Source: Ryuthela nishihirai
Lineage: Eukaryota; Arthropoda; Arachnida; Araneae; Heptathelidae
Reading direction: 5' to 3'
DNA length: 64,000 nucleotides
NCBI GenBank assembly: GCA_038380435.1
Contig: JAWZYU010000007.1
Coordinates: 25,275,001 to 25,339,000 of the forward strand
Numbering within the stretch: the first letter of the stretch is position 1; every line of letters begins with the position of its first letter. Shown here one piece after another: positions 4,041-61,960 of this stretch. The position numbers and the translations under genes were made by a program. The notes beneath the pieces are model-generated. The model did not search any database, was not told the origin of the DNA, and was given only the letters and a program-made list of their open reading frames with translations.

Positions 4041-4738
4041 GGGTTGTGTTGTTTTACCTCTGAACGGCACTTTTTTGCACACTATGGGCTAAATGACCAG
4101 GTCACATGGACCCCGAAGGCTTTGTTGTTTGGGTTGTTTTACCTCTGAGCGGCACTTTTTTGCACACCATGGGTTAAATGGCCAGGTCACATGAACCCCG
4201 AATGCTCAGAGAAGGTTGGGGGAGGGGACCCACTGGAACAGCTGTTGGGAGACAGATGGTAGCCTCCCGTCAAGGCCATCCAGCGTGTTCTTTAACGTGC
4301 ACAGGGCATGTCTCTCCCGCACACGGGGCCACGGCTTAACCTCCCATCCGACGGACGGCGGCCTTTCCAAGCCCATCGGTGTCCCCTACTGACCGTGGGC
4401 AGGGCGGGGAATTTTGCGGACCCCGAAGGCTCAGAGAAGGTTGGGGGAGGGGACCCACTGGAACAGTTGTTGGGAGACAGATGGTAACTTCACGTCAAGG
4501 TCATCCAGCGTGTTCTTTAGCGTGCACAGGGTATGTCTCTCCCGCACACGGGGCCACGGCTTAACGTCCCATCAGACGGACAGCGGCCTTTCCAAGCCGA
4601 TCAGTGTCACCTACTGACCGTGGGCAGGGCGAGGAATTTTGCGAAGATAAATCTCCACGCTGACGCAGCTGGGACTCGAACCTGGGAACTGCAGATTACG
4701 AGCCTGGCGCGCTACCGACTGAGCCCCCCGCCCCCCAG
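4041..4738 (-). repeat. Three SINE-A fragments in tandem
   Basis: Reading left to right (the element's 3' to 5'), three partial copies follow one another: a short tail at 4041-4120, a tail plus body at 4131-4420, and a body plus full tRNA-like head at 4420-4738. The second junction joins ATTTTGCGGA to CCCCGAAGG and shares GGA with both parents, a microhomology junction. All three face the same way, so this is a rearranged multimer, not three independent insertions. Confidence 0.85.
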
Positions 4739-11040: not shown

Positions 11041-11095
11041 GGTGAGCTGCTTGGAAGCTGCTAACTCAGAAAGGTGAGCTGCTTGGAAAGTTTGA
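11008..11095. repeat. Inverted plus tandem duplication at Tigger 5' end
   Basis: TTTCTGAGTTAGC is followed after 12 bases by its exact complement GCTAACTCAGAAA. That segment is then repeated directly with a period of 32 bp (GCTGCTTGGAAGCTGCTAAC begins again). The duplication starts inside the transposase N-terminal codons and ends recognisable Tigger sequence. Confidence 0.8.
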
Positions 11096-11349: not shown

Positions 11350-12290
11350 GTGAATATACTATAAAGGAAGAGAGGCGAGCAAACGGCTAGTGGCTTAGGG
11401 GAGAGCCCAAACTACAGGTCTGTTGCTTTCAGGGAGAGGAGACTTATGTCCAAGGCACAGACTCCTCTCCCAAATTATCTATTCTTTTTCAGGTTCACTG
11501 GCTATTAATCATTCGGAGATATTAGGTTGAGGTCGTAACTCTTTACTACAGGGGAGGTGGGGAGCCCTTGGTCCTTTGGACATGGACTCCTCTCCTCCCC
11601 CCTTTTTACTTCTCCGATTTCCCGTTTCCGGGTGGATCCTCCCATGGACTTAGCCCGGAAACTACACCCTTCACGTCCAAGGGTGCTGGCCTCACCTCCA
11701 GAAGCTGGACTCAAGGGATGGCACTGGCCATAGGTTGCTGAAATTCAGCAACGCATCTAGTAGGGAATGGCAGGCCAGTTGAACAAGTCAGGATGGGCTC
11801 AGTTTGGGCATCAGGGAGTTTTATCATGGTAGCCACGCCTATGAGTGGCCCACCAGTTTACCATAGGTGGAGACCCGTAATGTGGAAAAGGGGATCCTGG
11901 CGGTTGAGGGTCAGGAAAGCTGGTAACCCAATACACCGTTCTCGGCCCCTGCTTCAATAAAATGGGCGGTCTGAGCTGGCTCACTCAGATCAATCGGTTC
12001 GTGAGGCATCACCTGTCCTACCTCTACGTCCGGGGTGGATCAGGGGTGGTTGCGTGAGCCAACCAGGTGGATGTGATTCCTGACGATAGGGGTTGAGTCC
12101 GGACCAGGACCCGGATCAGTCCAGGACTTGACCTGGATCTTGCTCCGGTCCAAAGGGTGATCTGAAGTCTGGGTATAACCTGGGCGCAGTTCTGAGGAAC
12201 CTCGAGCATTATACTCAAGCTCTGAGTAATCCCCATGTAGGGCTTGGTTGTGGGTGGAGACCGCCTAGGTGGAATACCCTACAAACAACT
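11350..12290 (+). mobile_element. 5' UTR of R1-clade LINE (approximate start)
   Basis: GC-rich, gene-like sequence directly upstream of ORF1 with no conserved frame. Its base composition differs sharply from the AT-rich sequence before about 11340, so I place the element's left end near there. No TSD was identified. Confidence 0.5.
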
Positions 12291-12817
12291 ATGAAGCCGA
12301 CGAATTTAACGACGGAATCAGGTAATACTCGATCGCGACGGACAGGGAAAAAAGACAGCAAGCCCACAGAAGCTGCTGATCTTGAAGTGGTAGTGGAGGA
12401 AGTCCCTGAGACTCCCCCTCCCACCACAAGTAATGAAGGAGATAGAGAAGCGCCTCCAACAAGTTCAGAGTACCCGAGTAAAGGAATTGATAAAGGGTGC
12501 CAAAACACCAAGACGGCCCTGGATAATGAGGTGGAACCCAACGGAAACGAGATGGGTTCGGGGAGGTTGGCTACTGCTGCTAGCTTTCTGGAGGAACTCG
12601 CGGTGGCGATGTTTCAGTCAAAGATAGAAATAGAACTGAAGGATAAAGTAATGGGTGCAGCAAGGAAACTGCACGCCATAATTTGTGAACAGGAACTCCA
12701 GGTAGCGACTATGAGAGGGCTCATCACTGAGAGAGCTGTGTGTCCCCAAGAGTCAAAGGGGAAGCCACCGACTTATGCAAAAGCTGTCGGTGGTCAAGGG
12801 TTAGAAAAGGGAGGTTC

Positions 12818-12875
12818 GGTGGTGGCTAAAAAGTCCACCCCTCTGAGCAGATGGGTGGGCTTTTTAGCCACCACC
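12818..12875. repeat. Inverted repeat within ORF1
   Basis: Arms 12818-12840 and 12853-12875 (23 bp each, one mismatch) around a 12-bp spacer CTCTGAGCAGAT. The left arm begins GGTGGTGGCTAAAAAG. A template switch within a replication or reverse-transcription intermediate would make such a structure. Confidence 0.9.
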
Positions 12876-13307
12876 TTTATCTCTAAGTATAAAGAGAAGA
12901 CAGCCATTGAAGTTAGGGACAGCCTAAAGAACAACGTAAACCCTTCCGAGTTGAATCTCGGGGTGATGACAGTAAAACCGATGAGAACAAACGGTGTCAT
13001 CGTTGAATGTAGCACACCGAGTGACATGGACTGTCTAAAAAAGGCAGTAGACAGCCATGAAGCGCTAAAAGACGTGCTAGAGGCCAAGTCAGCCAAGAGG
13101 CTAATGCCAAAGCTCATAGTCTAGGGAGTCGACAAAGGCATCCGCCGAGAGGACCTTCAGAGGGTTATCCAAACCCAGAATGGGCTAGCCCATGAACACG
13201 CGGATCTAACCCTGTTGTCCTCTTTAAAAGGACGAGTTGAGAATACCATCCACTGGGTAATGGAAGCCAGTAGCTCCTCCTACAGAAAGTTGATTGAAGT
13301 AGGTAAG

Positions 13308-13445
13308 ATAAACGTGATCTGGTCGCGTTGTGACGAATGTGACGAACGCGTTGTGATGAAATCTGGTCGCGTTGTGACGAATGTGACGACGTTGTGACGA
13401 ACGCGTTGTGATGAAATGATAAACGTGATCTGGTCGCGTTGAAAA
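13308..13445. repeat. Short tandem duplication disrupting ORF1
   Basis: CTGGTCGCGTTG, TGTGACGAATGTGACGA and CGCGTTGTGATGAAAT recur in register two to three times. The outermost copies of ACGTGATCTGGTCGCGTTG bracket the insert, so a single segment appears to have been multiplied inside ORF1 ahead of the zinc knuckles. Confidence 0.85.
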
Positions 13446-13717
13446 ATACTAGTTAAAGAGTATATTCAAGTGCTCAGATGCTACAAGCGTTATTCATTTG
13501 GACACATGCAAAAAGATTGTACTGAAAAGACGCAATGGTGTTCACAATGCGGGCAAGCACTCGTACAAGGAGTGTAAGAAGCCCAAGCCGAAGTGCATAG
13601 TATGTAAAGAAGCTAATAAGGAACATGGAGCCAAGTATGACATTGGCCACAGTGCGATGGACAGCAATTGCCCGTCGTACTGTAGAGAGTTGAAGTTGTT
13701 GCACAAGAGCACCGACT

Positions 13718-16700
13718 ATGGGCAGTAGGCCTCCAGGTGGATACAGGGCGAGTCTGAAATTTGTTCAGATAAATTTGAACAGGGCAAGGGCCACAATGAC
13801 CCAACTCAGCCAGGAGATAAAAGAAGAAGGAGTCGATGTTGCTCTAGTGCAAGAACCTTATTGCACAGAGAACATCATTAGGGGGCTCCCTCTGACCAGC
13901 AGGCTATTTTGCATCAAAGGAGCTAAGCCGAAAGCTGGAGTTGTCGTTTTGAACCCCAAAGTGAATGCCATCCTGGGATATCACTCTGATACTATAGTAG
14001 TAGTGGAGATTGGCTGTGGGGGACTATTATTATACGCCATCTCCATCTACTGTCCTCCAAATAACAACATCGAGGACTCATTGACCGAGTTACAAAACGT
14101 CCTGGCTTGAGTCAACTCTAAGAACTTAGTGATAAGTGATGACTTCAATGCGAAGCACTCCTTATGGGGTTCAACTAGGCAAGACATCAGAGGAGATATG
14201 ACTCTACATTTTATCAACTCTTCTGATCTAATTTTATTAAATGATTGGGATACACCAGCTACATTTCATGGCCCTCGAGGTCAGAGCTGGATCGAATTGA
14301 CCCTGGCAACGCCTCGGATGTTTCCTCAGATCCAAGATCGGTGCGTTAGCGACAAGGTCACTAACAGCGACCACAACTATATTGTGTTCCTTGTGGGTGG
14401 AACAACACCTCCCCCACACTATGTTAAGGGGTTTGCGGTGGGCAGGACTCCTGACTGATGTAAACTCGCGCGTTGTGTTGCATCGGGTCTGGCGGAGATC
14501 GGCCAGCATGTCTCTACCATTGGTGATTGTCTAACTCTGAATAACATCCTCAGAGGTCTGACAGAGTGTCTAAGTTCTGGATGGGAGTCAACCGTTGGGT
14601 TTAAGAGGCAACCCAGAGCAGGCAGTAGATCGGTGCCCTGGTGGACACCTGAGCTCAGTGTTAAGAGAAGAAGGGTCAGAGCTCTTAGGAAAAGGTACCA
14701 AAGTTGCCGCAATGGGAACAGAAGTTCCAGAGAGGAAAAGTACAGGAAAGAACAGGCGGAATATAAGCTCGCTATACGCCAAGAACAACTGGCCTCTTGG
14801 CAGAAGTTTTGTAGCGAAGTCTCTGCACAGAACCCATTTACTCTGCAGTATAAGCTGGCTACGGAGAAGGACATAAAACCCCTGGAAATTGAATATGTTT
14901 GCAAAGAAGATGGGTCCAAGACCTCTTCCTTTGGTGAAACAATCCAGGTATTATTAGAGAATCTATTCCCGCCAGATGACAGGAGCTCTGATGACGCCCA
15001 ACGTCAACTCCTACGGGAACATAGCAGGCTACCAGCGGGTACGGAAGATGTTGTTCCGTTCACGGAAGAGGAAGTGGGAGAGGTGATAAGGATATGTCTA
15101 GGGGGTAAAGCTCCGGGATATGATGATCTGACAGAGGAAATAGTGTCACAGGTGTTTAGTGAACACAAAGATCTTTTCACCCAGCTCTTCAACATCTATT
15201 TGAAACTGGGAATTTTCCCACAAGCCTGGAAGTAGGCTGACCTGATCCTATTCAATAAGGCAGGCAGGAATCCGGTAGATGCAAGATCATACAGACCAAT
15301 ATGTCTGCTTCCGGTGCTGGGAAAAATACTAGATAAACTCCTGAAGAACAGGATGTATTTCCATTGCTTTAAGAACGGATTCCTGAACGTTAAGCAATTT
15401 GGGTTCAGGACAGACCAGTCCACCATTGCCGCTATCAAACAAGTGGTGGACATTATTAAGGTAAATAAAATGTACAAGATGCATACCTCTCTCATAGCCT
15501 TGGATGTGATGGGCGCTTTCGACAACGTGTGGTGGGCCTGCAATTCTTAGTAGACTAAAAGAATGTCTTGTTCTAGGAACATCTATGTTCTAGTGGCCAA
15601 TTACCTCAGTGAGAGGGTGGTCAACTATTCCCATGCCAGTGGGACAGCCTCAATAAACTTTGAGAGAGACTTCCCACAGGGTTCGTGAAGCGGACCGTTC
15701 TTCTGGAACTTGGTCGCCAATACTGTCCTGGAGTTGACCCTACCAGAGGGTGTCTGGCTCCAGGCTTATGCTGATGACATGCTGATTGTTATATCGGCAT
15801 CCTCCAGAGCGAGATTGGAGATTGCCGGCAATGCAGCATTGTCTGTACTCGAAGGATGGAGTCTGCGCAAAAAGCTTGGGTTCAGCTTTGTAAAGACAAC
15901 TTCCATGACCGTGGCCAAAGAGGGTGTCCTCAAAAAAAAAGGTACCCGATTTTTAAATTACATGGCAATAATATTCGCCATATGACGACTCTCAAGTACT
16001 TGGGGATCACTCTGGATGAAAGGATGAGCTGGATCCCGCACTTGCAGGACTTAAAGGTAAATGCACAAATGTTATGTGCAAGCTGGGGCGAATGGCTCAC
16101 GTCTCGTGGGGACTCAGAGGTGAAGTCCTCAATGAAATTTATCTCAGGGGCACGGAGAGGATCCTAACTTATGGAGCGGGTGCCACCAGGCCCCTGACGG
16201 ACCACTCCATTATGTGTAGAAAGCTGATTGCAGCCCAACGACTGGCTTTACTGTGAATCACCAGGGCTTATAGGACCACATCCACGGATGCCCTCATGGT
16301 ATTAGCAGGGATCCCTTCGCTATTTTTGATGGTCGGTAAAGAAGCGACCATTTTCAGAGTCCTGCAAGCTAAGGAGAAAGCAACATTCTTTGGAGTCCAG
16401 TATGACCCCGAGGATTACGAAACAGATACCGCTAAGTGGGATATCCATCCCGCTAATAGACTGAGTGTGTCATGGTCTACGGAGTTACCATCAGGATTAG
16501 GAATTGAGATATACACTGATGGTTCCAAGAGAGAGGATGGTGCGGGTTTAGCCTACACTATCTACAATCAAGGAGCCAAAGTGTACGATTATAATAGGAA
16601 AGTTTCTAATAATGGCTCAGCCTTCCAAGCGGAACTGCTCGCTATCAGAGCGGCCCTCAAATGGGCCCTCCATGACGGCGGTCGAAACAGCGACATCCGG

Positions 16701-17345
16701 CTGTAGACAGACAGCCAGGCAGCTCTGCAAGCGCTTGAAGATGTAAACAATAGGCATCAAACTGTTAACGAGATCAAGCGCATCTTGGGTAATAAGAACA
16801 TGCCCAGAATTTCCTTCTCTTGGATCAAGGCACACGTAGGTCATGAGGGGAACGAGCGGGCAGACCAACTGGCAAGCTCAGTAGGTAGTAATACTCAATC
16901 TGTGATAGCGGTAAAGACTTCAAAAACTTCCGTGAAATACATACTATGTCGAAGAGAAATTACTGAGTGGCAGCGGCTCTGGGATACGACTGAGAATGGT
17001 CTTCAAACTAAGACATTCTTGAAAAGGGTCAGTCTATCCCTGATGTCCTCTGACCACTATTTGACGCAGGTCCTGATGGGACATGGGAGTTTCCTTAAAT
17101 ATCTGGAGCGCTTTAAGATCTCTACCCACAGTTACTGCGGCTGTGGGACTCCAGATGCAGATGTCGGGCACTATATTCACAGGTGCCCGATTACGGAAGG
17201 GTTCGCTAACGACCTCAGGAGCTCCCAGGCGATCAATGAGGTAGCAGGCGAGGCGGTCACGGTGTCCATCGAGAGTGCCCAAGTCAGGACACATTTGAGG
17301 GACATGGGCTTACTTGTCTGCAGGCTCCGGGACTCTCTTCTTTGA
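13718..17345 (+). pseudogene. ORF2 (endonuclease-RT-RNase H) of R1-clade LINE, broken
   Basis: Polyprotein that nicks target DNA and reverse-transcribes the element. Its ATG (13718) overlaps the ORF1 stop (13726-13728). Order: APE-type endonuclease (KFVQINLNRARA, VQEPY, NSDHN; 13750-14440); RT with GFRTDQST, LIALDVMGAFD, a damaged PQGS-GP motif and QAYADDM (15760); RNase H with YTDGS (16515), AELLAIRAAL (16630), TDSQ (16707) and KAHVGHEGNERAD (16827); then a C-terminal CGCG...GHYIHRC knuckle (C-x1-C-x8-H-x4-C). VQEPY/INLNRARA endonuclease motifs and the C-terminal knuckle are typical of R1, TRAS and SART. In-frame stops at about 14108, 14456, 15233, 15548, 16253 and 16704; frame shifts near 15540, 15980 and 16080. 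Normal length is about 1100-1200 codons, so little is missing. Inactive. Confidence 0.92.
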
Positions 17346-22610: not shown

Positions 22611-22822
22611 ATAAATAAAAATAAATAAATACCCCCTCAAGCAGATGCTTGCCACAGAGGTCTGACAGGAGCCTGTCAGTTTATATGCCATAGTAGAAGG
22701 TCTGTGAGGATGGCAGGCCCTCAGCAGAAAAACGACACAAACAGCCATGCCTTAACTGGGATTCGAACCCAGGTCCCTTAGATCAGTTGCCAAGCGCGCT
22801 AACCACTCGGCCATGGGACGGC
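22611..22822 (-). repeat. SINE-B, full length, abutting tRNA-Asp
   Basis: On the minus strand: head GCCGTCCCATGGCCGAGTGG (A box), B box GGGTTCGAATCCCAG, body with CTGACAGGCTCCTGTCAG and GCATCTGCTTGAGG, tail TATTTATTTATTTTTATT. Its head starts one base after the T4 run that ends the tRNA-Asp gene. Confidence 0.93.
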
Positions 22823-22832
22823 TAAAAGAACA

Positions 22833-22904
22833 CTCCCCGGCGGGGAATCGAACCCCGGTCTCCCGCGTGACAGGCGGGGATACTGACCACTATACTACCG
22901 AGGA
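22833..22904 (-). tRNA. tRNA-Asp (anticodon GTC)
   Basis: 72-nt gene on the minus strand. The acceptor stem TCCTCGG pairs with CCGGGGA (one T-G wobble), followed by discriminator G. A box TAGTATAGTGGTCAGTA; anticodon stem CCCGC/GCGGG around loop CTGTCAC, anticodon GTC; T arm CGGGG-TTCGATT-CCCCG. All arms pair, no intron, and no CCA encoded, as expected in a eukaryote. TTTT follows five bases after the 3' end (22824-22827), a minimal Pol III terminator. It looks functional, unlike the many tRNA-like SINE heads around it. Confidence 0.96.
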
Positions 22905-23544
22905 AGTATAATAATACACAGTGAAAATTGCCCCTTTTATACACTGGCGATCATCTCACACAACTGCACTTATTTATATTTAGAAAGAGATTGCTCTGAA
23001 TTAACAATGTTCATTCAGACTGATAAATATGAGAGAGACCATATAGATATTTTTTGAAACAACTAGAAAAGAATCAAATTCTCGGTGTTATTTCATTCTT
23101 TCACAGTTTTTGAGCTTGAACATACTGCTCAAAATTATATTATCAACATCATTCGCAGAAATATTTACGCATTTAAGTTAATTTGGATCGAAAATTTGAC
23201 ATGCTTTATTAAAAAAAGATGTTACGGGCTGATCTGCAAAAAATCTGCAGTTTTTTTGCATCATTGAAACACTGCCCAATTTTTTTTTTCGAACACGAAC
23301 GGAGTGTGTTTTTTGCGACTGTTCGATCACATTATCGGGTTCTTCTGAGTACTTTTACTGCCAAATCGTTCATTTATTCCATTCTACATTTCCCCCAACG
23401 TATTACTCCATTAATGAAAATCATGCAGAGGAGATTTGAAGGAGATTGTCTCCTCCACCTGAGGAGTGAATGTAGGAAGTTTACAGTTTAATCTTGTAGA
23501 AACCAGTTGTTGAGGAAATGTTAAGATCACTAAAGCAAGAATCA
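22905..23544. other. AT-rich spacer, no gene seen
   Basis: Upstream region of tRNA-Asp. Nothing conserved recognised. Confidence 0.45.
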
Positions 23545-25781: not shown

Positions 25782-26760
25782 TGATTCACGTGATGAAATT
25801 CGAATTTTTTAATTAATGAATCATTTTCTTTGAGTGATCGTTTGAATGATTTTAAATGGTTGTGTATTGTTGTGTACTTGGCAGATATTTTCGGATACAT
25901 GAATGAACTTACTTTAATAAGCCTACAGTGTGCATCTGTAACAATTAATGTTGAAAACAGTATCGAAGCAATGATAAAGAAATTAGACCTATGGTCCCAT
26001 CATCTTTGCAACAATATTTACTCGAATTATCCGATGTTCAATGATTTTTATAGAAACCACAAAAAGATTACTGATGACATACGAAAAGATTTCATTGAGC
26101 ATTTGAATACATTGAAAAGTAATTTTAGGAAACATTTTCCTTCCCCTGATTCCAATAATAAATGGATTAAAGATCCATTTAATAAAGGTGTAAAAAATCA
26201 TAAAAGGCTTAACAAGTAATGAAGAAAACAGCTTGGTGGAGATTTGTGACAGTTCGTTAAAACTATTGTTTATCAAATATAATTTGACTGACGTTTGGTT
26301 ACATTTACGCTCTGAATATGCAGAACTATCAAACAAGGCGTTGAAACATTTAATGCTATTTGCTACGACTTATTTGTGCGAACGGACTTTTTCAGCACTT
26401 TTATAGAACAAGTAAAAAATATAGAAACAGACTAAATGTGGAACCTGATTTGAGAGTGCATGTTGGCACAATTGAGCCAAACATTTCTGAACTTGTTTCC
26501 GTCAAACATCAACCTTCAACTAAATAAAATATAATGTTGTTTTTAATTTATTGTAACTGCATATTAAAAAAAACGTTGTTGGTATAGATTCTTTTTTCAT
26601 AAAACCTATTCCTTTTTCTAGTATTCCAAGTACAGGATGCAAAAACACAGGGCTATAATTTAAGATAAAACTAGTCAACACCATACCCCTCCACATGGGT
26701 CAGCGGTATTTTTCAAATTAAAATAATGATCCTCCGCTTTCAAAAGGTTGAGGACCACTG

Positions 26761-27573
26761 GTCTAGAGATCTGAAAATTTCTGATTTAGATTATGCTGAT
26801 GATTTATCCCCTTTTGGAAAAGGTGTTGATGAGGTGAACTCTTTCAATAGAGCTGGTAGAGTAGGTTTGATGATAATTAGGGAGAAAATTAAAGTGATGA
26901 AAATATTGGTCAGGCAGGCTGTGGTTCAGTTTATCTGAATGATTGCACTCTTGAGCAAATGTCTGAGTTTAATTATCTTGACAGTTATGTAACAGACACT
27001 GGTGATGTGCGGCATGAGATTGGCAGACGATTAGGGGTTGGCGTTGGAACTTTTAAGAATCTATGCAGAGTGTGGAGAAATAGGCGTACATACCTAAACA
27101 CTAAAATTAGACTGTATAATAATTTGGTTCTTTCTGGAGTTAGTTATGGTAATGAAATTTTGACCCCTTGTAAGCAATATAGCAGAAAAGATGTTTTGGA
27201 TATTAGATGTTTACCCACACTCTTGGCATTAGGTGGTTCGACTTTGTAACTAATGATGAGGTTAGTCAAAGGAGTCGGCATCCTCCTTTAAGCAGCATAT
27301 TGTGCAGAGAGAAACTCTGTTGGTTTGGCCATGTTGCCCGTATGGATAATTATAGATTAGCTAATAGGGTTATGAACAGTGTGCCTAAAAGCTTCAGAAA
27401 GAAGGGGAGACCTAGGATGCGGTGGACCGACAATGTCAAACAGGGCCTTATTAGAATTGGTGTGCAGTGGCCAGATGCAGCAGATGTAGCTCAGGACAGA
27501 CATGCTTGGAAAACTAAATTCCACCGTCTGGTTGAACCTCTGTAGCCCATGGCTGCTTGAGGATGATGATGAC
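26761..27573 (+). mobile_element. LINE-A fragment, right of the hAT insertion
   Basis: Resumes LINE-A: ISDLDYADDL (RT YADD box, about 26775), FNYLDSYVTD, KIRLYNNLVLSGVSYGNE, LCWFGHVARM, RKKGRPRMRWTDNVKQG, then CCCATGGCTGCTTGAGG and (GAT)n ending near 27573. Frames shift at about 26935 and 27210. Confidence 0.92.
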
Positions 27574-29590: not shown

Positions 29591-29793
29591 GAAAAATAAA
29601 CACCCCCTCAAGCAGCTGCTTGCCACAGAGGCGTGACAGGAGCCTGTCACAGTTTATATGCCATAGTAGAAGGTCTGTGAGGATGGCAGGACCTCAGCAG
29701 AAAAAGAGCACGACCATGCCTTATTCGGGGCTTGAACCCAGGTCCCTTAGATCAGTAGCCATGCGCGCTAACCACTCGGCCACGAGACGGCAG
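29591..29793 (-). repeat. SINE-B, full length
   Basis: Reverse copy: AAATAAACACCCCCTCAAGC at the tail, B box GGGCTTGAACCCAGG, head GGCCGAGTGGTTAGCGCGC on the minus strand. A partner 3' end in opposite orientation follows at 29877. Confidence 0.92.
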
Positions 29794-29876
29794 AAATGTA
29801 ATACAGCATAAAAATTAATAAGGATATCAGGACTCTTATTAAATCATTTCCTATTTAAAAACTTGAAAATTAAATA

Positions 29877-37450: not shown

Positions 37451-37660
37451 GCCGTCCCATGGCCGAGTGGTTAGCGCGCTTGGCTACTGATCTAAGGGAG
37501 CTGGGTTCTGAGCCCCGAATAAGGCATAGATGTATGTGTCGTTTTTCTGCTGGGTACCTGCCATCCTATCAGACCTTCTACTTTGGCATATAAACTGACA
37601 GGCTCCTGTCAGACTTCTGTGGCAAGCAGCTGCTTGAGGGGCTATTTATTATTATTTTTT
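37451..37660 (+). repeat. SINE-B, full length, forward reference copy
   Basis: Head GCCGTCCCATGGCCGAGTGG with A box; TTAGCGCGCTTGGCTACTG; B-box region GGTTCTGAGCCCCG (one change from the usual GGTTCGAGCC). Body TTTTTCTGCTGGGTACC; 3' hairpin CTGACAGGCTCCTGTCAG; terminal AAGCAGCTGCTTGAGGGG then TATTTATTATTATT. The head resembles class II (Ser/Leu) tRNA in its A box. Confidence 0.93.
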
Positions 37661-40097: not shown

Positions 40098-42140
40098 AAA
40101 TCCTCAAGGAGCCATGAGCTATGGAGGTCCTACCCGACTGTGCAATTTTGCTCACTGAAGGAAAATCTCACATCTGTTCTAAGCTACAGCTGCTGCATTT
40201 GGTCACTGTAGGCGAATCCTAGCAAGGTCTTATTTGACATCGTCTGCACACTGCATACTAGGTTTCCCCCTCCCCCTCTTTCTGAGCCTTTACGCATACT
40301 GTTGTACTATTCGCCAATATGCAGTTATGCATACTTACAAATGGCCAAATCAACGGAGTCTCTCCACAATAAACTGCTAAAAGGCGGTTTCTGACTCTTC
40401 TAACCTTATCGTTACTTAGAAAATCAAACCAACTAATGCTCAAGATACTGCGTAAGCAATATAATCAAAGGCATCAAAGGCAATAGAATCAAGTTTTCTG
40501 TTAACCTGTCTATAAACGGTCCATATTTCGCTACCATAACTAATCCTACAAAGAACCAACGATCATGCAGACTGATTTTAGTGTTTAGGTGTATATACCT
40601 ATTTTTCCGCACTCTTCATAGATTCTTAAAAATCCCAGCAGCAATTCCTTTTCTTCTGTTTATCTCATGACGCACATCATCAGTTCAACAGATCCCAAGA
40701 AAATTAAACTGGGATACTTGCTGAAGAGCTCAACTGTTCAAAGCAACTGAAGCAGTATCTGATTCACCAATTTTCAACACTTTAGTTTCCTTTCTGTTTA
40801 TCACCAAACCTACTCTACTACCAATCTCATCAACAGTCATAATGTAAGAATTCATCTCATCTACATCATTAGCCAACAGAACAGAATAATCTGCATAATC
40901 TAAATCAGAAAGTTTGAATCTCTAGACCAGTGTCTCGCAAACCTTTTTACTCTGCGGCACACTGAATCTATTTTTTTCCGCGGCACACCGAATCTAATTT
41001 TTTTCCGAGGCACACTGAATCTAATTTTTTTCCGCTGCACACCTAAAAAAGAATTTTTGATGGTTACGTAAAAAGATAAAAATTGAAGTTTCGTTAAAGG
41101 CATTTTATTTAAAATAAATATAATAATAAATATAATTAATCATAACTCGGTGTTTGTTTTAAATACTTGTCCATTCTATGGCTTGAAATAATCAAAAATT
41201 AATACCAAAAATTGGAAAAAGCTTGATAAATACTTACAAGATCCCAATTGATAAAATCTGAAAGATTTTTTGTTAAAGCACGTCGATAGCACTTCGATAT
41301 TAAAGCACGTCGATAACACAAGTCAAGTCAAAATGAAATCTTTGGAATATCTAGTGTCAATTTGAAAATCTCTCGCGGCATACTACTGTGCCGCGGCACA
41401 CAGTTTGCGAGACACTGCTCTAGACCATTTGAGGTCAAAATCTTTCCCTTGCAAAAAGAATTTCGCATAACATAATCAATAATCAACCAAAAGAGAAAAG
41501 GAGACAAAATGCACCCTTGTCTAATTCCACTAGCAAACTGAACCAATTGCGACTAGTCTTACCAACTCTCAAGCACGATTCAGTTTATAAAGAGCTTTCA
41601 TTATGCTAACTAATTTGTCAAGTATGTGATACGATCTCACAATCAACCATAAAGTATGACGATTAACAGAATTAAAAACCTTTTTGAAATATATGAATCT
41701 CGTAACCAAAGGTTTATGAAACTCTAAAATATTTATCAAGAACCTGCTTAAGTGAAAATATTTGATCAGTACATCCCCTACCATTTCTGAATCCACACGT
41801 TCAGCATGCAATTGTCCATCAAACAAATTCCGAATTTTATTAAGCATCATTATGCAAAGAACTTTATCTGGAAGAGAAAGTGAACTAATTCCCCAATAAT
41901 TTCAAAAGAACTGCGATCACGTTTTTAAAAATAAGGATAATAAGATATCTAGTAAAATACTTAAAAACAACACCTTTATCATAAAAAATATTCAAAATTT
42001 CAGTTAGCCAAGTGACAACACAAACATTCCCAGCTTTAAGAATTTCAGTAGTAATTTCATCTATCCCCTGGGATTTATATAGTTTTAATTTAGAGGTAGC
42101 TAAGATAAATATGGTGGTAATACCGTATTTTACGTAAAAT
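40098..42140 (-). mobile_element. LINE-A, reversed, split by a hAT MITE
   Basis: Minus-strand LINE-A covering most of the RT. From the right: KSQGIDEITTEILKAGNVCV (about 42040), a degraded fingers region, FIYFKKVFNSVNRHTLW (about 41670, D lost to N), GIRQGCILSPFLFWLIIDYV (41480-41530), then after the MITE (40928-41417) the YADD region (40880-40920, decayed), GRVGLVINRK-like, FNYLGS-like, and the 3' end TAGCTCATGGCTCCTTGAGG near 40100. Numerous stops. No endonuclease, so 5'-truncated. Confidence 0.85.
40928..41417. mobile_element. hAT MITE 'M', short form, 8-bp TSD
   Basis: Ends CAGTGTCTCGCAAAC and GTTTGCGAGACACTG are exact inverted complements over 15 bp. CTCTAGAC flanks it exactly at 40920-40927 and 41418-41425. 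Near the left end are three to four units of a 27-bp repeat (GCGGCACACTGAATCTA followed by a T-run and CC). Inside is ordinary AT-rich DNA. The partner with the expanded array is at 43371-45010. Confidence 0.95.
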
Positions 42141-42582: not shown

Positions 42583-42782
42583 ATAAATTCCCCCTCAAGG
42601 AGCTGCTTGCCACAGAGGTCTGACAGGAGCTTGTCAGTTTAATACGCCATAGAGAAGGTCTGATGAGGAAGGCGAGACCTCAGCAGAAAGACAACGCAAA
42701 CATCCATGCCTTACCCGGAACTCGAACCCAAGTCCCTTTGATGAGTAGACAAGCGCGCTAACCACTTGGCCACCAGGACGGC
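42583..42782 (-). repeat. SINE-B, first of a head-to-tail pair
   Basis: Reverse copy with tail AATAAATTCCCCCTCAAGGA, body hairpin, B box GAACTCGAACCCAAG, head GGCCAAGTGGTTAGCGCG on the minus strand. Confidence 0.9.
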
Positions 42783-42784
42783 TA

Positions 42785-42977
42785 AAAATAAATATTCCCT
42801 CAAGCAGCTGCTTGCCATAGAGGTCTGATAGTTTATACGACATAGTAGAAGATCGTGAGGATGACGGTACCTCAGCAGAAAGGCAACAGAAACATCCATG
42901 CATTACCGGATACTTATCGAACCCAGGTCCCTTTGATAAGTAGCGAATCGCGCTAACCACTCGGCCAGGGGACTGCG
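42785..42977 (-). repeat. SINE-B, second of a head-to-tail pair
   Basis: Follows the previous copy after two bases in the same orientation. It lacks about 18 bp of the CTGACAGG hairpin. The two copies differ enough that they look like independent insertions at one site, not a recent duplication. Confidence 0.9.
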
Positions 42978-43370
42978 AAACATATTCTATTGTTAAAAAA
43001 ATAAACACTTTAAAATCAGAAAGTAAAACGCAATATTATATTAAGTGTTGGAAATGTTCACCAAGACCAGCAGTACGTGCATTCACTCTTTTCCTCATGT
43101 TTGAGGCAACCAGATGAAGAGTTTCTTCAGTCATGTAACGGGATATCAAATATTATACTTATCTGAGAAAGATATAACAACATTTCAAGAGCCCCGGAAT
43201 CTGGATATTTACAGTTCATAAATAAAGCAAATTTTTCCGATATCTTTAACCTGCAAGTTATATATTTACAAGTTATATACACACATACACTCAGCACTCA
43301 CTAAATTATGACCACCTTCCTCCATGTTATGTAAGTGAAAGCTAACTTTGAAGTTCTATATCATCTAAAC

Positions 43371-45010
43371 CAGTGTCTCGCAAACTGCGTGCCGGGCACA
43401 GTAGTGTGCCGCGAGAGATTCCAAGTGTGCCGCGAGAGATTTTCAAATTGACACTAGATATTCCAAAGATTTTATTTTGACTTGACTTGTATTATCAATT
43501 TTGTGTATTAAAAGTTTTTTCTCTGTTACCTGTCGACGTGCTTTACTAAAAATCTTTCAGATCTTATCAACTGGGATCTTGTAAGTATTTATCACGCTTT
43601 TTCCAAATTTTGGTATTAATTTTTGATTATTTCAAGCCATAGAATGGACAAACATTTAAAACAAACACCGAGTTATGAATTAAAGAACGAGAGCAAATCT
43701 TCAAGTAAAACCAGGCTGATGACTTCAACAAAGCGCAAATATAATGACGATTATATAGAGTATCGAAATTTTAAATAAAATGCATTTAACGAAACTTCAA
43801 TTTTTCTCTTTTTACTAACCATCAAAAATTCTTTTTTAGGTGTGCCGCGGGAAAAAAAAATTCGATTCAGTGTACCGCGGAAAAAAATTAGATTCAGTGT
43901 GCCATGGAAAAAAAGTAGATTCAGTGTGCCATGGAAAAAATTAGATTCAGTATGCCATGGAAAAAAATTCGATTCAGTGTGCCATGGAAAAAAATTCGAT
44001 TCAGTGTGCCATGGAAAAAAATTCGATTCAGTGTGCCATGGAAAAAAATTCGATTCAGTGTGCCATGGAAAAAAATTAGATTCAGTGTGCCATGGAAAAA
44101 AATTAGATTCAGTGTGCCATGGAAAAAAATTAGATTCAGTGTGCCACGGAAAAAAATTCGATTCAGTGTGCCATGGAAAAAAATTCGATTCAGTGTGCCA
44201 CGGAAAAAAATTCGATTCAGTGTGCCATGGAAAAAAAATTCGATTCAGTGTGCCACGGAAAAAAATTCGATTCAGTGTGCCATGGAAAAAAATTCGATTC
44301 AGTGTGCCATGGAAAAAAATTAGATTCAGTGTGCCATGGAAAAAAATTAGATTCAGTGTGCCATGGAAAAAATTATATTCAGTGTGCCATGGAAAAAAAT
44401 TAGATTCAGTGTGCCATGGAAAAAAATTAGATTCAGTGTGCCATGGAAAAAAATTAGATTCAGTGTGCCATAGAAAAAAATTAGATTCAGTGTGCGATGG
44501 AAAAAAATTAGATTCAGTGTGCCATGGAAAAAAGTTAGATTCAGCGTGCCATGGAAAAAAATTAGATTCAGTGTGCCATGGAAAAAAATTAGATTCAGCG
44601 TGCCATGGAAAAAAATTAGATTCAGTGTGCCATGGAAAAAAATTAGATTCAGCGTGCCATGGAAAAAAATTAGATTCAGTGTGCCATGGAAAAAAATTAG
44701 ATTCAGTGTGCCATGGAAAAAAATTAGATTCAGTGTGCCATGGAAAAAAATTAGATTCAGTGTGCCATGGAAAAAAATTAGATTCAGTGTGCCATAGAAA
44801 AAAATTAGATTCAGTGTGCCATGGAAAAAAATTAGATTCAGTGTGCCATGGAAAAAAATTAGATTCAGTGTGCCATGGAAAAAAATTAGATGCAGTGTGC
44901 CATGGAAAAAAATTAGATTCAGTGTGCCATGGAAAAAAATTAGATTCAGTGTGCCATGGAAAAAAATTAGATTCAGTGTGCCGCAGAGTAAAAAAGTTTG
45001 CGAGACACTG
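43371..45010. mobile_element. hAT MITE 'M', long form with tandem array
   Basis: Ends CAGTGTCTCGCAAACTGCG and AGTTTGCGAGACACTG; flanks ATCTAAAC (43363-43370) and TTCTAAAC (45011-45018), seven of eight identical. Same family as 40928-41417 in opposite orientation, but 1640 bp instead of 490 bp. The extra length is the array at 43841-44985. Confidence 0.95.
43841..44985 (+). repeat. 27-bp tandem array, about 42 units
   Basis: Each unit is CCATGG, about seven A, then TTAGATTCAGTGTG. Outer units read CCGCGG (left) or CCGCAGAG (right) where central units read CCATGG, with CCACGG intermediates near 44145, 44200 and 44255. TTCGATTC units cluster at 43965-44070 and 44155-44310. AGCGTGCC variants fall every second unit near 44543, 44597 and 44651. 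Because 27 is a multiple of three and the unit has no stop, all three forward frames stay open (the longest is 396 codons of a nine-residue repeat such as CHGKKLDSV). This is a repeat artefact, not a protein gene. Confidence 0.97.
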
Positions 45011-45696
45011 TTCTAAACTAAGCGTTTTATAAGAAAATGTAACGGAAGATAAATTAAAGATCTCGATTAAATCTATCTAAGTTTCGATTTTGAATAATGT
45101 TCGCTTTATACTTAAAGAGTTATGGACTTCGAATATTTAACAACAACAATGCTAGTCTTCGTAAAAATTTAAAAATATCGAAATTTCATTTACATTAACT
45201 TTTCAAATATATGTACATCTCTTATATTAAATGGTGTGAAATAATACTTCTTATTCAAGTTATAATTAACTTCTGAGTTGCATTCTAAACGTAAGGCATT
45301 GCTATTGTCAAACTCCCATAACTCTTTAAATATTAAGGAAATATGATTGAAATCGAGATTTAGATAGATTTGATTGAGATCTTTATCTTCCGTTACATTT
45401 TCTCATAAAACGTTTAATTTAGAATTATGGTGCTTCGAAATTAGCTTCTACTGACATAACATGGAGAGAGGCGGTCATAATTTAGAGAGAATTGAGTGTG
45501 TGTGTATATACAGGGTGTCTCAAAAATATAGGTACAAACTTTTAGGGGAGGTAGATAACATCTAAAGGAATGAGAATTACATAGGAACCCATAACCGGAA
45601 ACGTCACTGTAAGTCAATAAGCGGCGCTGTTCATCAGTGCCGTAGAGAGGAAATTTCGGATTTCCTCATTCGAGCGGTAGTCGGCTGACGAAGAGC

Positions 45697-46780
45697 ATGC
45701 AAAAGTATTCGAACAGGGAGCTGGCAGACATGCACTTAGCGTATGAAATAGCTGAGGGCAACGGACGAGCCGCTCAACGAATGTATCAAGAACGCTTCCC
45801 ACACAGACATGTACCGGGTCACCGTTTGTTTGCACGTGCGCATCAAAATTTGTGCGATTATGGGTCATTAAGAGGTAGCAGAACTGAGGGCAGGCAACGA
45901 TCGACGCGTACTCCCGCCATGGAAGAAAGTGTGTTTAATGCCGTGGAGACTAATCCTAGTACCAGCACACGTGCCATTGCCTCTGCCTTAGGAGTGTCTC
46001 GTTGCAGTGTACAGCGAGTTTTGCACGGCGAGTCCTTACACCCCTTTCATCTCCAAAGGGTTCAGTTACTTCTCCCTGCAGATCATCCTGCACATGTGCG
46101 TTTTGCGCAGTGGTATCTCCAAGAAAGTGCCCAAGATGTCACTTATGTTTTGTTACTGATGAAGCCAGTTTCATTCGGGATGGCGTATTCAATCAGCACA
46201 ATGCGCATTTGTGGGCTCACGAGAACCCCCACGGTGTGCACACCCATGCAGCACAATTATCGTTTCGCAGTAAATGTGTGGTCAGGTTTGGTCGGTGACT
46301 GCTTAGTCGGGCCATACCTTTTACCATCTCGCATGACCTCCGCGAAGTATCTGATCTTTCTGGAACAGGTTCTACCAGGCTTACTTGCCCATGTTGCAGC
46401 AAATGTGAGACGCAACTTGTGGTTTCAACATGATGGGGCGCCTCCCCATTATGGAAGGTGTGTTCGTGCGCATTTGAACATGTCTTTTGGGTAACGATGG
46501 ATTGGGCATGCTGGACCAGTTACCTGGCCCTCACGCTGACCTGATTTAACGAGCGTTGATTTCTTTCTGTGGTGGGTCCTCAAAGCTACTGTGTATGAAT
46601 TGCCTGTGGAGTGTGGCATGGATCTCGTGGCAAGGCTCGTCTGCGCTGCTGCTACTATCAAAGAAACTCCAGGTGTGTTCGACCGTATCCGGCAATCAAT
46701 GCTCCTTCGGTGTCACGCATGCATCGCGTCTCATGGTGGAAACTTCGAGCATCTGCTGTAACATTATGAAATGTATCATC
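45697..46780 (+). pseudogene. IS630/Tc1-mariner-type transposase, broken
   Basis: 265 codons open from the ATG at 45697. N-terminal DUF4817-like/HTH region (NRELADMHLAYEIAEGNGRA), second HTH (NPSTSTRAIASALGVSRCSV), then the catalytic core. The first aspartate block, VTDEASFIRDGVFNQHN, is now in another frame (46157-46210), between two compensating shifts near 46150 and 46255. The second block is LWFQHDGAPPHYG (46420). The third, LTSVDFFLWW (about 46548), follows a TGA and is out of frame. Residual C-terminal codons run to about 46780, with an AATAAA near 46810. The architecture matches a family common in ants and other arthropods. Nonfunctional. Confidence 0.88.
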
Positions 46781-46945: not shown

Positions 46946-48784
46946 ATAAGCGTGTAAAAGATCAGTTACCTGCTGATAAGAATCTTTGGCTTGATGGTTT
47001 GGCTGACAAAGCCGAGGAAGCAGTTAGACAGCACAACAGCAGAGAGTTGTACCAGATAGTTAACGTTTTGTGTGATAGAAAACGGACAGGTATACAGGGA
47101 TTGAAGGATAAACAAGGTAAGGTTATAGAAGGGGAGGATTCTGTCATGGCTAGGTGGGCTGAGCATTTCAGTGATGTTCTAAACAATGTAATTAGTTCTA
47201 CTCCCATTGTTTGCAATGATGATAGATGCATTGGTGGCTTTAATGTTGGCCCTATAACACAATCTGAAGTTATTTTGGCTGTTTCTAAACTTTAAACTGC
47301 ATTAATCCCCAGGGGTAGATGAAATTACTACCGAAATGCTTAGAGCTGGGAATGTTTCGGTTACCACTTGGATGACTGAAATTCTGAATATCTTTTATGA
47401 TAAAGGCATGGTTCCTAAGAATTTTACCAGAGCTATTGTTATCCCTATTTTCAAAAAAGGTGATCGCAGTTCTTGTGATAACTATAGGGGTATCAGCCTA
47501 CTCTCTGTTCCAGGTAAAGTTCTTTCCGTGATTGTGCTTAATAGAATTAAGAATCTGGTTGACAGTCAATTGCGTGATGAGCTATGTGGATTCAGAAGTG
47601 GTAGGGGATGTGTGGATCAACTATTTTCACTTAGGCAGATTCTTGAGAAATGTTTCGAGCGTCAGAAACCTTTGGTTGCTAGCTTTGTTGATTTCAAACA
47701 GGCTTTCGACTCTATTGATCGTCAAAATTTGTGGTTGATTGTGAAATCATATGGTATACCAGACAAGTTAGTTAACATAATGAAAGCTCTCTATAATAAC
47801 ACTGAGTCGTGTGTGAGAGTTGGTAAGGCTTGTAGCAATTGGTTTAGCATTACTTCTGGTGTTCGACAAGGATGCATTTTGTCTCCTTTTCTCTTTAGCT
47901 TGGTTATTGATTATGTTATGCGAAATTCACTTCAAGGGAAAGATTTTGGCCTTAAATGGGCTGGAGATACGAAAATTTCTGATTTAGATTATGCTGATGA
48001 TTTAGCCCTTTTAACAAATGATGTTGATGAGATGAACTCTTTCATTCGAGCTGTTGATGAGACTGGTAGTAGAGTAGGTTTGGTTATAAACAGAGAGAAA
48101 ATTAAAGTGATGAAAATTGGCCAGGCAGGCTGTGATTCAGTTCATCTGAATGGTTGCAGTCTTGAGCAGGTGTCACAGTTTAATTATCTTGGGAGCTATG
48201 TAACAGATAATGGTGATGTGCGGCATGAGATTAACAGACGAATAGGGATTGCTGCCGGGACTTTTAAGAATCTATGGAGAGTGTGGAGAAATAGGCGTAT
48301 ACATCTAAAAACTAAAATTAGACTGTATAATAGTTTGGTTCTTTCTAGGGTTAGTTATGGTAGTGAAACTTGGACACTTTGTAAACAAGATAACAGGAAA
48401 CTAGATGCTTTTGATTCCAGATGCTTATGCAGTATCTTGGGCATTAGGTGGTTCAACTTTGTAACTAATGATGAGGTTAGGCAAAGGAGTTTGCAACCTC
48501 CTTTAATCAGCATTTGTGTAGAGAGACTTCGTTGGTTTGGCCATGTTGCTCGTATGAATAATTATAGATTGGCGAATAGGGTTATGAACAGTGTGCTTAA
48601 AGGCCTCAGAAAGAAGGGGAGGCCTAAGATGCGGAGGGCAGACAATGTCAAACAGGACCTTGTTTAGAATTGGTTAGCAGTGGCCAGATGCAGTAGATGT
48701 AGCTCAGGATAGACTTGCTTGGAGAACTAAATTGCACGGTCTGGTTGGACCTCCGTAGCCCATGGCTGCTTGAGGATGATGATG
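46946..48784 (+). mobile_element. LINE-A, best copy, inserted in a transposon end
   Basis: 5'-truncated non-LTR element. It begins inside the linker before RT and ends CCCATGGCTGCTTGAGG plus (GAT)n. AAAA stands at both borders (46942-46945 and 48785-48788), the only possible TSD. The host is the right TIR of the IS630/mariner element. Confidence 0.95.
46960..48667 (+). pseudogene. LINE-A reverse transcriptase, nearly intact
   Basis: Reverse transcriptase of a non-LTR retrotransposon. Pre-RT linker (DKNLWLDGLADKAEEA, ARWAEHFSDVLN) in one frame to a stop near 47295; after a short shift the 443-codon frame from 47336 holds FKKGDRSSCDNYRGISLL, GFRSGRGCVDQ, FVDFKQAFDSIDR, GVRQGCILSPFLFSL, DLDYADDLALL (catalytic YADD, about 47990), GLVINREKIKVM and FNYLGSYV. 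The long C-terminal part has RVSYGSETWTL, LRWFGHVARM and RKKGRPKM. The C-terminal motifs and short tailed 3' end resemble the RTE-like group; clade needs a tree. The endonuclease is missing. The last codons shift at about 48665, so the natural stop is lost. Confidence 0.9.
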
Positions 48785-53740: not shown

Positions 53741-53930
53741 ACATATTTCTTAAGAAAGTGTAGAATTCAGTTAACGTTTTCCATTGAACATTTAATTAAT
53801 AATTAACTTCATAAATATGTAAGAAATGAAAAAATAATTTACATAATTTTATTGTTTTCATATAAATTGTTTTATAATTGAATTCAAACTCGAAACTTAA
53901 TTAATTTTATTTGTGTATAAATATTTTTAT

Positions 53931-54762
53931 TTAGATTATGCAGATGACTTGGCTTTGTGGCTTTGTTGACTAATGAGGTTGATGAGATGCATCCTTTCAT
54001 TAGGGCTGTTGATGAGACTGGCAGTAGAGTAGGTTTAGTTATAAACAGAGAGAAATTTAGAGTGATGAAAATTGGTCAGGCAGATGGTGCTTTAGTTGCT
54101 TTGAATGGATGCACTCTTGAGTCTCAGTTTAATTATCTTGGGTACTGTTTCTCAGTTTAATTATCTTGGAAGCTGTTTAAGAGATACTGGTTATGTGCGA
54201 ATTGAGATAAAGAGAAGAACACGGATTGCTGCTGGGACGTATAAGAATCTTTGGAGAGTGTGGAGAAATAAGCGTATATACCTAAAGACCAAAATTAGAC
54301 TATGTAATTGTTTGGTCATTTCTAGGATTAGTTATGCTAGTGAAACCTGGACCCCTTGTAAGCAAGATAATAGGAAACTTGGTGCCTTTGATTCTAGATG
54401 CTTGCGCAGTATCTTGGGCATTAGGTGGTTCAACTTTGTAAGTAATAATGAGGTTAGAAGAAGGAGTCATCAACCTCCTTTGAGCAACATTTAATGCAGA
54501 GAGAGAGACTGCGTTGGTTTGGCCATGTTGCCCGTATGCATAGCTGCAGATTGACAAAAAAGATTATGAACAGTATGCCTAAAGACTTCAGGAAAAAGGG
54601 GAGGTCTAAGATAAGACGGACAGACAATGTCAAACAGTACCTTGCTAGAATTTGCCTAGAGTGGTCAAATGCAATAGCTGTAGCTCAGGATTGAGGTGTT
54701 TGGAGAAAAAAAATTGCACAGTGTGGCTGGCCCTGCTTAGTCCATTACTGCATGAGAATTTT
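53931..54762 (+). mobile_element. LINE-A 3' half
   Basis: Starts at the YADD region (DYADDL, 53936) and runs VDETGSRVGLVINREKFRVM, FNYLG, KNLWRVWRNKRIYLKTKIRL, SYASETWTPC, LRWFGHVARM, RKKGRSKIRRTDNVK. It contains a tandem duplication at 54121-54172 that doubles the FNYLG-coding segment. The 3' end is decayed (GTCCATTACTGCATGAG). Confidence 0.9.
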
Positions 54763-55184
54763 GTATGTATGTGTGTTAAGGTTCGGTTTGGGTTTTTAGA
54801 ACAAAAATAAAATTCAATAAGGTTTGAATTTGGATTTAATTATAAAGCAATTTATATGAAAACAATAAATTATATAAATTAATGTTTAAATTTGTTATAT
54901 ATTGTAAAGAAACGATGAAGCCATTACTGTGGTGTCGTGTGACGCTCGAGATTTGCCTCGGAGTGAGCGTTTCGTCACTAGCCAAGAAGAACTTTTAAAT
55001 ATAACGATAGATCAGAGTAATTCTGAAGAATCTGTGGTGAACAGAAAGTTAATTGATTTTTGTCTGTGCTGTTAGTCTAAAGAAGAAAATATTGTTGCAA
55101 ATTAAAATGGATGAGCACTGAGCATGAATTCAAGTAAAAATTAGTCAATGAAAATTACAATACAATGCAATTTATTACATTAAA
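54763..55184. other. AT-rich spacer, no gene seen
   Basis: No conserved frame or repeat recognised. Confidence 0.45.
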
Positions 55185-60387: not shown

Positions 60388-60470
60388 CTGTCCGGTAGCC
60401 GAGTGGTTAGCGTGCTTATCTACTGATTGCAGAGAACTGAGTTTGAGCCACAGATAAGTATAAATACCGC
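60388..60470 (+). repeat. SINE-B head, diverged
   Basis: CTGTCCGGTAGCCGAGTGG, GTTAGCGTGCTTATCTACTG and a decayed B box GAGTTTGAGCCACAG. Body lost. Confidence 0.65.
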
Positions 60471-61745: not shown

Positions 61746-61759
61746 AGATATTTTTGTAG

Positions 61760-61960
61760 CAGTCCTATGGCCGAGTGGCTAGCACGCTTGGCATTGATCT
61801 AAGGGACCTGGGTTCGAGCCTCGGGTAAGGCATGGATGTATGTGTCATATTTGTGCTGAGGTCCTGCCATCCTCTGAGACCTACTCTGGTATATAAACTG
61901 ACAGGCTCCTATCAGACCTCTGTGGCAAGCAGCTGCTTGAGGGGGTATTATTATTATTAG
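61760..61960 (+). repeat. SINE-B, full length, inside LINE-D endonuclease
   Basis: Head GTCCTATGGCCGAGTGGCTA, B box GGTTCGAGCCTCGG, body to GCTGCTTGAGGGGG with tail TATTATTATTATTAG. It separates the DEYL and LAENGL codons of the LINE-D endonuclease. Confidence 0.93.

What the first reader, a model, noticed from the sequence alone, without database searches (positions are those of the whole stretch)
43371..45010. A 27-bp tandem array born inside a hAT MITE, with a short-form sibling 2 kb away
Two copies of the same MITE lie in the window with near-identical 15-bp ends and clear 8-bp TSDs. The one at 40928-41417 has three to four units of a 27-bp repeat at one internal position; the one at 43371-45010 has about 42. 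So the window may show both stages of satellite birth from a transposon. Edge units keep CCGCGG while central units carry CCATGG, exactly what deamination of both CpGs gives, with CCACGG intermediates. This suggests that decayed units were amplified and homogenised after CpG decay.
Basis: partly seen in the sequence, partly recalled or inferred. Interest (0 to 1): 0.82.

Follow-up and report, generated by a model that had tools for sequence, protein, structure and literature searches.

The report
Tandem repeat inside hAT-like transposon copies
Two defective copies of one cut-and-paste transposon sit 2 kb apart, one with three and one with 42 units of a 27-base repeat, which fits a small repeat expanding inside a mobile element, a process already described in other animals.

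Summary
The sequence facts are largely right. Copy A (40928-41417, minus orientation) and copy B (43371-45010) share a perfect 15-bp terminal inverted repeat; their 8-bp duplications match at 8/8 (A) and 7/8 (B) bases. A is a real insertion: removing it plus one duplication restores continuous alignment to another LINE copy. A holds 3 complete units and B holds 42, each with a further partial unit fused to the 3' end. The unit looks like the transposon's own 3' subterminal repeat; no free copy lies elsewhere in the window.

The reading needs correction. The copies are differently deleted relatives: B keeps a 44-codon open frame, A 12 codons. CCGCGG survives only at the left edge of B's array. 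The three CCACGG "intermediates" are spaced exactly two units apart, so probably one variant copied in 54-bp steps, direction unknown. Two of A's three units carry transversions at the same dinucleotides, and A/B differences show no CpG excess. Amplification of an altered unit is well supported; CpG deamination as its cause is only compatible.

MITE-borne arrays that seed satellites are known (Tetris, miDNA4, Xstir). The genome search did not complete, so whether B is typical stays open.

The parts
40920..40927 (.). left 8-bp target site duplication of copy A, CTCTAGAC
   Evidence: the right one at 41418-41425 is identical
40928..41417 (-). copy A: 490-bp nonautonomous hAT-like element, inserted in a degenerate LINE reverse transcriptase copy
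   Evidence: TIRs; restored LINE alignment through the junction
40963..41042 (-). three complete units (27, 27, 26 bp) in copy A with CAGCGG, CCTCGG and CCGCGG; the TIR-fused partial unit is at 40928-40962
41418..41425 (.). right 8-bp target site duplication of copy A
43363..43370 (.). left target site duplication of copy B, ATCTAAAC
43371..45010 (+). copy B: 1640-bp nonautonomous hAT-like element carrying the long array
43403..43444 (+). 5' subterminal tandem duplication of a 21-bp unit AGTGTGCCGCGAGAGATTYYM (single, with one difference, in copy A)
   Evidence: alignments, motif positions
43644..43778 (+). 44-codon open frame plus stop, read here as the remnant start of the transposase gene (inferred; no database match)
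   Evidence: translation; no hit
43840..43896 (+). two left-edge units that keep CCGCGG (30 and 27 bp)
43897..44975 (+). 40 inner units, mostly CCATGG; alternating variants at 44139-44274 and 44544-44678
44976..45010 (+). TIR-fused partial unit (CCGCAG) and 3' TIR
45011..45018 (.). right target site duplication of copy B, TTCTAAAC (7 of 8 identical to the left)

Best explanation
A and B are two internally deleted, nonautonomous copies of one hAT-like transposon, both probably once moved by a transposase encoded elsewhere. The 27-bp unit is the transposon's own 3' subterminal repeat, present as a few copies next to the 3' terminus in the ancestor. In the lineage of B, a unit whose CCGCGG had become CCATGG was multiplied to about 40 by unequal exchange or replication/repair slippage, partly in steps of two units (54 bp), leaving the outer left units unaffected. 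Shown: element boundaries, insertion of A, position and number of units, homogeneous inside against a divergent left edge, two-unit periodicity. Inferred: that few units is the ancestral state, the exchange mechanism, and that the subterminal motif binds transposase.
For: Four identical 15-bp TIRs and 8-bp duplications. Removing A plus one duplication turns two LINE alignments (850 and 700 columns) into one of 1540 columns at 77.6% identity, through the junction, to the copy at 47270-48777 (no gap at the junction in the local alignment). The array lies at the same place in both copies, between TTCTTTTTTAG and the 3' TIR. The motif GCGGCACA starts at base 27 from the 3' tip in both copies and at base 24 from the 5' tip of A (GGGCACA in B), so the unit motif is shared by both ends; GTGTGCCGCGG with up to 1 mismatch occurs 14 times in the window, 14 of 14 inside A or B, against 0.21 expected. 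Inner units B02-B41 each differ from the consensus by 0-2 positions, the edge units by 6 and 3, A's units by 3, 3 and 4. Units are most alike at lag 2 (0.842 differences against 1.214 in 5000 shuffles, P=0.0002) and also at lag 1 (P=0.0014); variants at units 11/13/15 and 26/28/30 alternate. Outside A and B the longest match in the window to two joined units is 14 bases.
Against: Only two copies are known, so the ancestral length is not established; A could be a contracted copy. Private substitutions in the inner array (8 in about 1080 bp, counted by hand, indels left out) against half of the A-B divergence (7 in 352) give only P=0.067 for a younger array, 0.17 with three shared variants added, and homogenisation makes this a poor clock. 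The 44-aa frame matched nothing, so the hAT assignment rests on ends and duplications. B's duplications differ at one base and B has no empty-site test. All four combinations of CCGCGG/CCATGG with TTCG/TTAG occur among units, so exchange between units or repeated mutation complicates a single-founder story.
Confidence: 0.7

Rival explanations
1. The array was already long before B last moved: B inserted as a 1.6-kb element and the expansion happened at another locus. (This differs from the best explanation only in timing and place.)
For: Perfect 15-bp ends would allow movement of the long form; nothing in the window dates expansion relative to insertion.
Against: No second long array in the window. 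Private variation in the array is low, but the comparison is not significant (P=0.067).
Confidence: 0.35
2. A pre-existing 27-bp satellite was captured by the transposon (the model reported for miDNA4 in the review PMC12628747).
For: Not excluded, since the genome could not be searched.
Against: The unit carries the motif found near both tips, and a partial unit (GTGTGCCGCAGAGTAAAA) continues into the 3' TIR; no free unit in the window.
Confidence: 0.08
3. A is a contracted copy and a longer array is ancestral.
For: Arrays lose units as easily as they gain them (general knowledge); A has a larger internal deletion than B.
Against: A's three units differ from each other and none has CCATGG; B's left edge also keeps CCGCGG.
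Confidence: 0.12
4. B's copy number is an assembly product (wrong unit number in a collapsed or expanded repeat).
For: Nearly identical 27-bp units are hard to assemble with short reads (general knowledge); no reads are available here.
Against: Distinct variants are ordered along the array (TTCG blocks, alternating pairs, private changes), so a multi-unit array is probably real even if 42 is not exact.
Confidence: 0.08

Closest known systems
Tetris / TIR-220 (foldback transposon, Drosophila virilis; PMC4079207, passages seen)
   Same: Variable-number tandem repeats inside the ends of a nonautonomous DNA transposon; long arrays more homogeneous than short ones; unequal crossing over invoked; the unit shares sequence with the terminal domain; repeats proposed to be extra transposase binding sites.
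   Different: 220-bp unit, foldback structure with long inverted repeats, and satellite-like arrays of up to 66 units reported there; here a 27-bp unit at one end of a hAT-like element, and no array outside the transposon shown.
miDNA4 (Tc1/mariner MITE with internal satellite, Xenopus tropicalis; via reviews PMC12628747 and PMC9659126, passages; original paper not read)
   Same: MITE with an internal monomer or array of variable number, proposed route from transposon to satellite.
   Different: Other superfamily. [quoted passage not shown] here the unit looks native to the transposon end.
Xstir MITE (Xenopus; via review PMC12628747, passages)
   Same: Array units derived from internal MITE sequence.
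   Different: A stem-and-loop mechanism that makes hybrid elements is proposed there; two elements lie close together here too, but hybrids were not tested.
Mar (hAT-Buster MITE, Drosophila willistoni; PMC3517528, passages)
   Same: Nonautonomous hAT copies by internal deletion, 8-bp duplications with central TA.
   Different: Different TIR (CAGRGGTAGGC); the word 'tandem' has 0 occurrences in its main text.

Membership tests
hAT superfamily | 8-bp target site duplication | tested here: met
   A 8 of 8, B 7 of 8; A verified against an uninterrupted LINE copy
hAT superfamily | short terminal inverted repeats (5 to 27 bp according to PMC3517528) | tested here: met
   15 bp, 4 of 4 exact
hAT superfamily | related hAT transposase | tested here: inconclusive
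   Only a 44-codon frame remains; no Pfam, protein or PDB match; the protein search covered only proteins of similar length
Buster family of hAT | duplication consensus nnnTAnnn (PMC3517528, PMC3499496) | tested here: inconclusive
   2 of 2 insertions have TA at positions 4-5, too few to tell from other hAT preferences (the Ac pattern nTnnnnAn is recalled, came from no call, and also fits)
MITE | short element without coding capacity | tested here: inconclusive
   A is 490 bp with a 12-codon stub; B is 1640 bp with a 44-codon open frame
MITE | many nearly uniform copies in the genome | not testable with these tools
   own-genome search did not complete (11 attempts, first, last); two copies seen in the window
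satellite DNA | long arrays outside the transposon | tested here: inconclusive
   none in the 64-kb window; rest of the genome not searched
satellite-seeding transposon (Tetris/miDNA4 type) | tandem array of variable unit number inside copies of one transposon | tested here: met
   3 and 42 complete units at the same internal position; n = 2 copies

The most novel reading that the evidence does not exclude
The unit is a hAT transposase-binding subterminal site (core AGTGTGCCGC, resembling the TIR tip), which the element multiplied at one end only. The array then kept growing after the site itself had decayed to CCATGG, so B would record the switch from a selected binding-site array to a selfish tandem repeat. 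Against it: the Hermes paper argues that exact phasing of subterminal sites matters and that auxiliary binding inside the ends is unlikely to support transposition (PMC10368747, passages).
Probability: 0.1. Interest if true: 0.55.

Novelty: new member of a known kind. Interest (0 to 1): 0.33.

Why it matters
It is a compact, readable case of a tandem array arising from a transposon's subterminal repeat, with a short-array relative 2 kb away as an outgroup for the units. If a genome survey shows a graded series of unit numbers, it would allow dating of when units begin to amplify and whether this depends on the units still being intact end motifs. The general process is already published for other transposons.

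Tried and rejected
Coding origin of the array: 27 is a multiple of 3, so 2 of 6 frames have no stop through it, which follows from the unit length; rejected. Stable hairpins as driver: four stretches folded as DNA had z-scores -1.19, -0.35, 1.05 and -0.76; no support. Relatives in public collections: exact patterns gave 0 matches in viral contigs (2 scans) and 0 in genome contigs (2 scans); these hold viruses and prokaryotes, so this says little about animals. tRNA and Rfam scans gave nothing inside A or B. TIR-like core of the unit: best 9 of 11 bases with the TIR tip, 0.34% of shuffles as good, but 1.7-4.6% at the other three lengths tried, and the best match of the 5' subterminal repeat was on the other strand; treated as a lead only. 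CpG-decay test by A/B differences: no excess. A five-term literature query on hAT MITEs, minisatellites and transposase binding found 0 papers; this is not evidence of absence in print.

Full report
Observation. The window holds two related elements. Copy A, 40928-41417, lies on the minus strand; copy B, 43371-45010, on the plus strand. All four ends read CAGTGTCTCGCAAAC exactly. A is flanked by CTCTAGAC on both sides, B by ATCTAAAC and TTCTAAAC, 7 of 8 alike. TRF finds 3.3 units of period 27 in A and 41.9 in B at 96% matches. Segmented, B has 42 complete units and A has 3, each followed by a partial unit that runs into the 3' TIR.

A is a real insertion. It lies in a decayed LINE reverse-transcriptase copy. 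With A in place, that LINE aligns to the copy at 47270-48777 as two pieces (850 and 700 columns); with A and one 8-bp duplication removed it aligns as one piece of 1540 columns at 77.6% identity that passes the junction, and the local alignment has no gap at the junction. The B flanks gave only short matches (39-69 columns) to dispersed repeats, so B has no such test.

What the elements are. A and B are collinear: 14 differences in 352 aligned bases of five single-copy blocks. I left out of that count the array, the region around the internal deletion, the 21-bp duplication of B, and a stretch of about 50 bp after GACTTGACTTG that does not align well. They are not the same deletion product. 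B has an open frame, ATG at 43644, of 44 codons, MDKHLKQTPSYELKNESKSSSKTRLMTSTKRKYNDDYIEYRNFK; A has a 12-codon frame, 10 of its first 11 residues the same, and then an AT-rich stretch. I read this as the start of the lost transposase gene. That is inference: no family, protein or structure matched, and the protein search covered only proteins of similar length. The hAT assignment therefore rests on the 8-bp duplications and the short TIR. Both insertions have TA in the centre of the duplication, as reported for Buster hATs (PMC3517528 and PMC3499496, passages), but two sites are too few to assign a family.

Where the array comes from. The unit, GTGTGCCGCGG-A7-TTAGATTCA in its CpG-rich form, lies directly inside the 3' TIR in both copies. 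Its motif GCGGCACA begins at base 27 from the 3' tip of both copies and at base 24 from the 5' tip of A (one base changed in B). The 5' side of B has its own 21-bp tandem duplication of AGTGTGCCGCGAGAGATT, single in A. GTGTGCCGCGG with up to one mismatch occurs 14 times in the window, 14 of 14 inside A or B, against 0.21 expected. So the unit looks like a subterminal repeat native to this transposon, and subterminal motifs are duplicated at both ends. Outside A and B the longest match in the window to two joined units is 14 bases.

History inside the array. Against the B consensus, units B02-B41 have 0-2 differences, the left edge units 6 and 3, and A's units 3, 3 and 4. A homogeneous inside with a divergent edge is what unequal exchange is expected to give. 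Units are most alike two apart (0.842 differences against 1.214 in 5000 shuffles, P=0.0002), and also one apart (P=0.0014); lag 4 has P=0.054 and lags 3 and 5-8 have P of 0.20 to 0.39. Two alternating variants stand out, at units 11/13/15 (CCACGG) and 26/28/30 (GCGTG); three of 40 units fall in such a 2,2 spacing with chance 0.0036 for one variant.

The CpG argument. CCGCGG is likely ancestral: it or a one-base variant is in A's units, B's two left units and the 5' subterminal motifs. Of 42 complete units in B 34 have CCATGG, 3 CCACGG, 2 CCGCGG, and the other three are CCATAG twice and CGATGG once. One altered unit amplified is far simpler than dozens of parallel changes. But deamination is only compatible. 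The CCACGG units are probably one variant copied twice, and a T-to-C reversion explains them as well as an intermediate does. A's units include CAGCGG and CCTCGG, which are transversions. Of 14 A/B differences 1 is a CpG transition, with CpG bases making 6.8% of A's sites. Window CpG observed/expected is 0.74 and TpG 1.13, a mild depletion that fits some deamination in this genome. The edge claim holds at the left only.

Time order. Eight private substitutions in about 1080 bp of inner array (counted by hand, indels left out) compare with seven (half of 14) in 352 bp of single-copy sequence, P=0.067; with three shared variants added, P=0.17. So the array may be younger than the A-B split, without significance. 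Whether expansion came before or after B inserted cannot be told.

Function. Hermes, a hAT transposon, has subterminal repeats bound by transposase BED domains, arranged differently at its two ends; the site is given as AAGT, revising an earlier GTGGC (PMC10368747, passages). The same paper argues that exact phasing is crucial and that auxiliary binding further inside the ends is unlikely to support transposition in cells, which speaks against a benefit of a long array. For Tetris the authors propose that terminal tandem repeats add transposase binding sites and raise transposition until arrays grow too long (PMC4079207, passages). By analogy the 27-bp unit may carry a binding site, and CCATGG units may have lost it. 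A weak resemblance of the unit to the TIR tip (9 of 11; 0.34% of shuffles, 1.7-4.6% at the other lengths) fits but does not prove this.

Known or new. Transposons with internal arrays that seed satellites are established: Tetris, miDNA4, Xstir and others in reviews (PMC12628747 and PMC9659126, passages). I ran ten literature searches, saw their listings, and read passages of six papers. In these I noticed no hAT case with a 27-bp subterminal array, but the library omits most subscription papers, and one close title (tandem repeat-containing MITEs in a clam) was not held. I file it as a new member of a known kind.

Limits. The host is unidentified; an animal is my inference from its repeats.

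Noticed in passing
47270-48777, 40100-42108 (around copy A), 53929-54779, 26742-27564: At least four copies of one LINE reverse-transcriptase family, 71-80% alike in DNA to the copy that holds A; the first has a 453-codon open stretch with RVT_1.
   Followed up: partly
12132-17342: Second LINE-like element in several open pieces, with RNase H matches at 16257-17342 (Pfam).
   Followed up: no
10331-11065 (-): 245-aa open frame with a Tc5/CENP-B type transposase DNA-binding domain.
   Followed up: no
45646-46491: 282-aa open frame with weak, below-cutoff matches to helix-turn-helix transposase domains, about 630 bp right of copy B.
   Followed up: no
42917-42980 and six further places: 22763-22826, 37451-37508, 29734-29796, 42722-42790, 61759-61817, 60390-60446: Short dispersed repeat of about 60 bp, 74-88% alike; one copy ends 5 bases before the predicted tRNA-Asp at 22832-22905, so that tRNA call may belong to a SINE.
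   Followed up: no
4044-4643: Adjoining tandem duplications with 85-bp and 225-bp periods at 91-93%.
   Followed up: no
41273-41315 (copy A): TTAAAGCACGTCGATA occurs twice here, in a stretch where B aligns poorly and has the motif once; another small duplication within the family.
   Followed up: no
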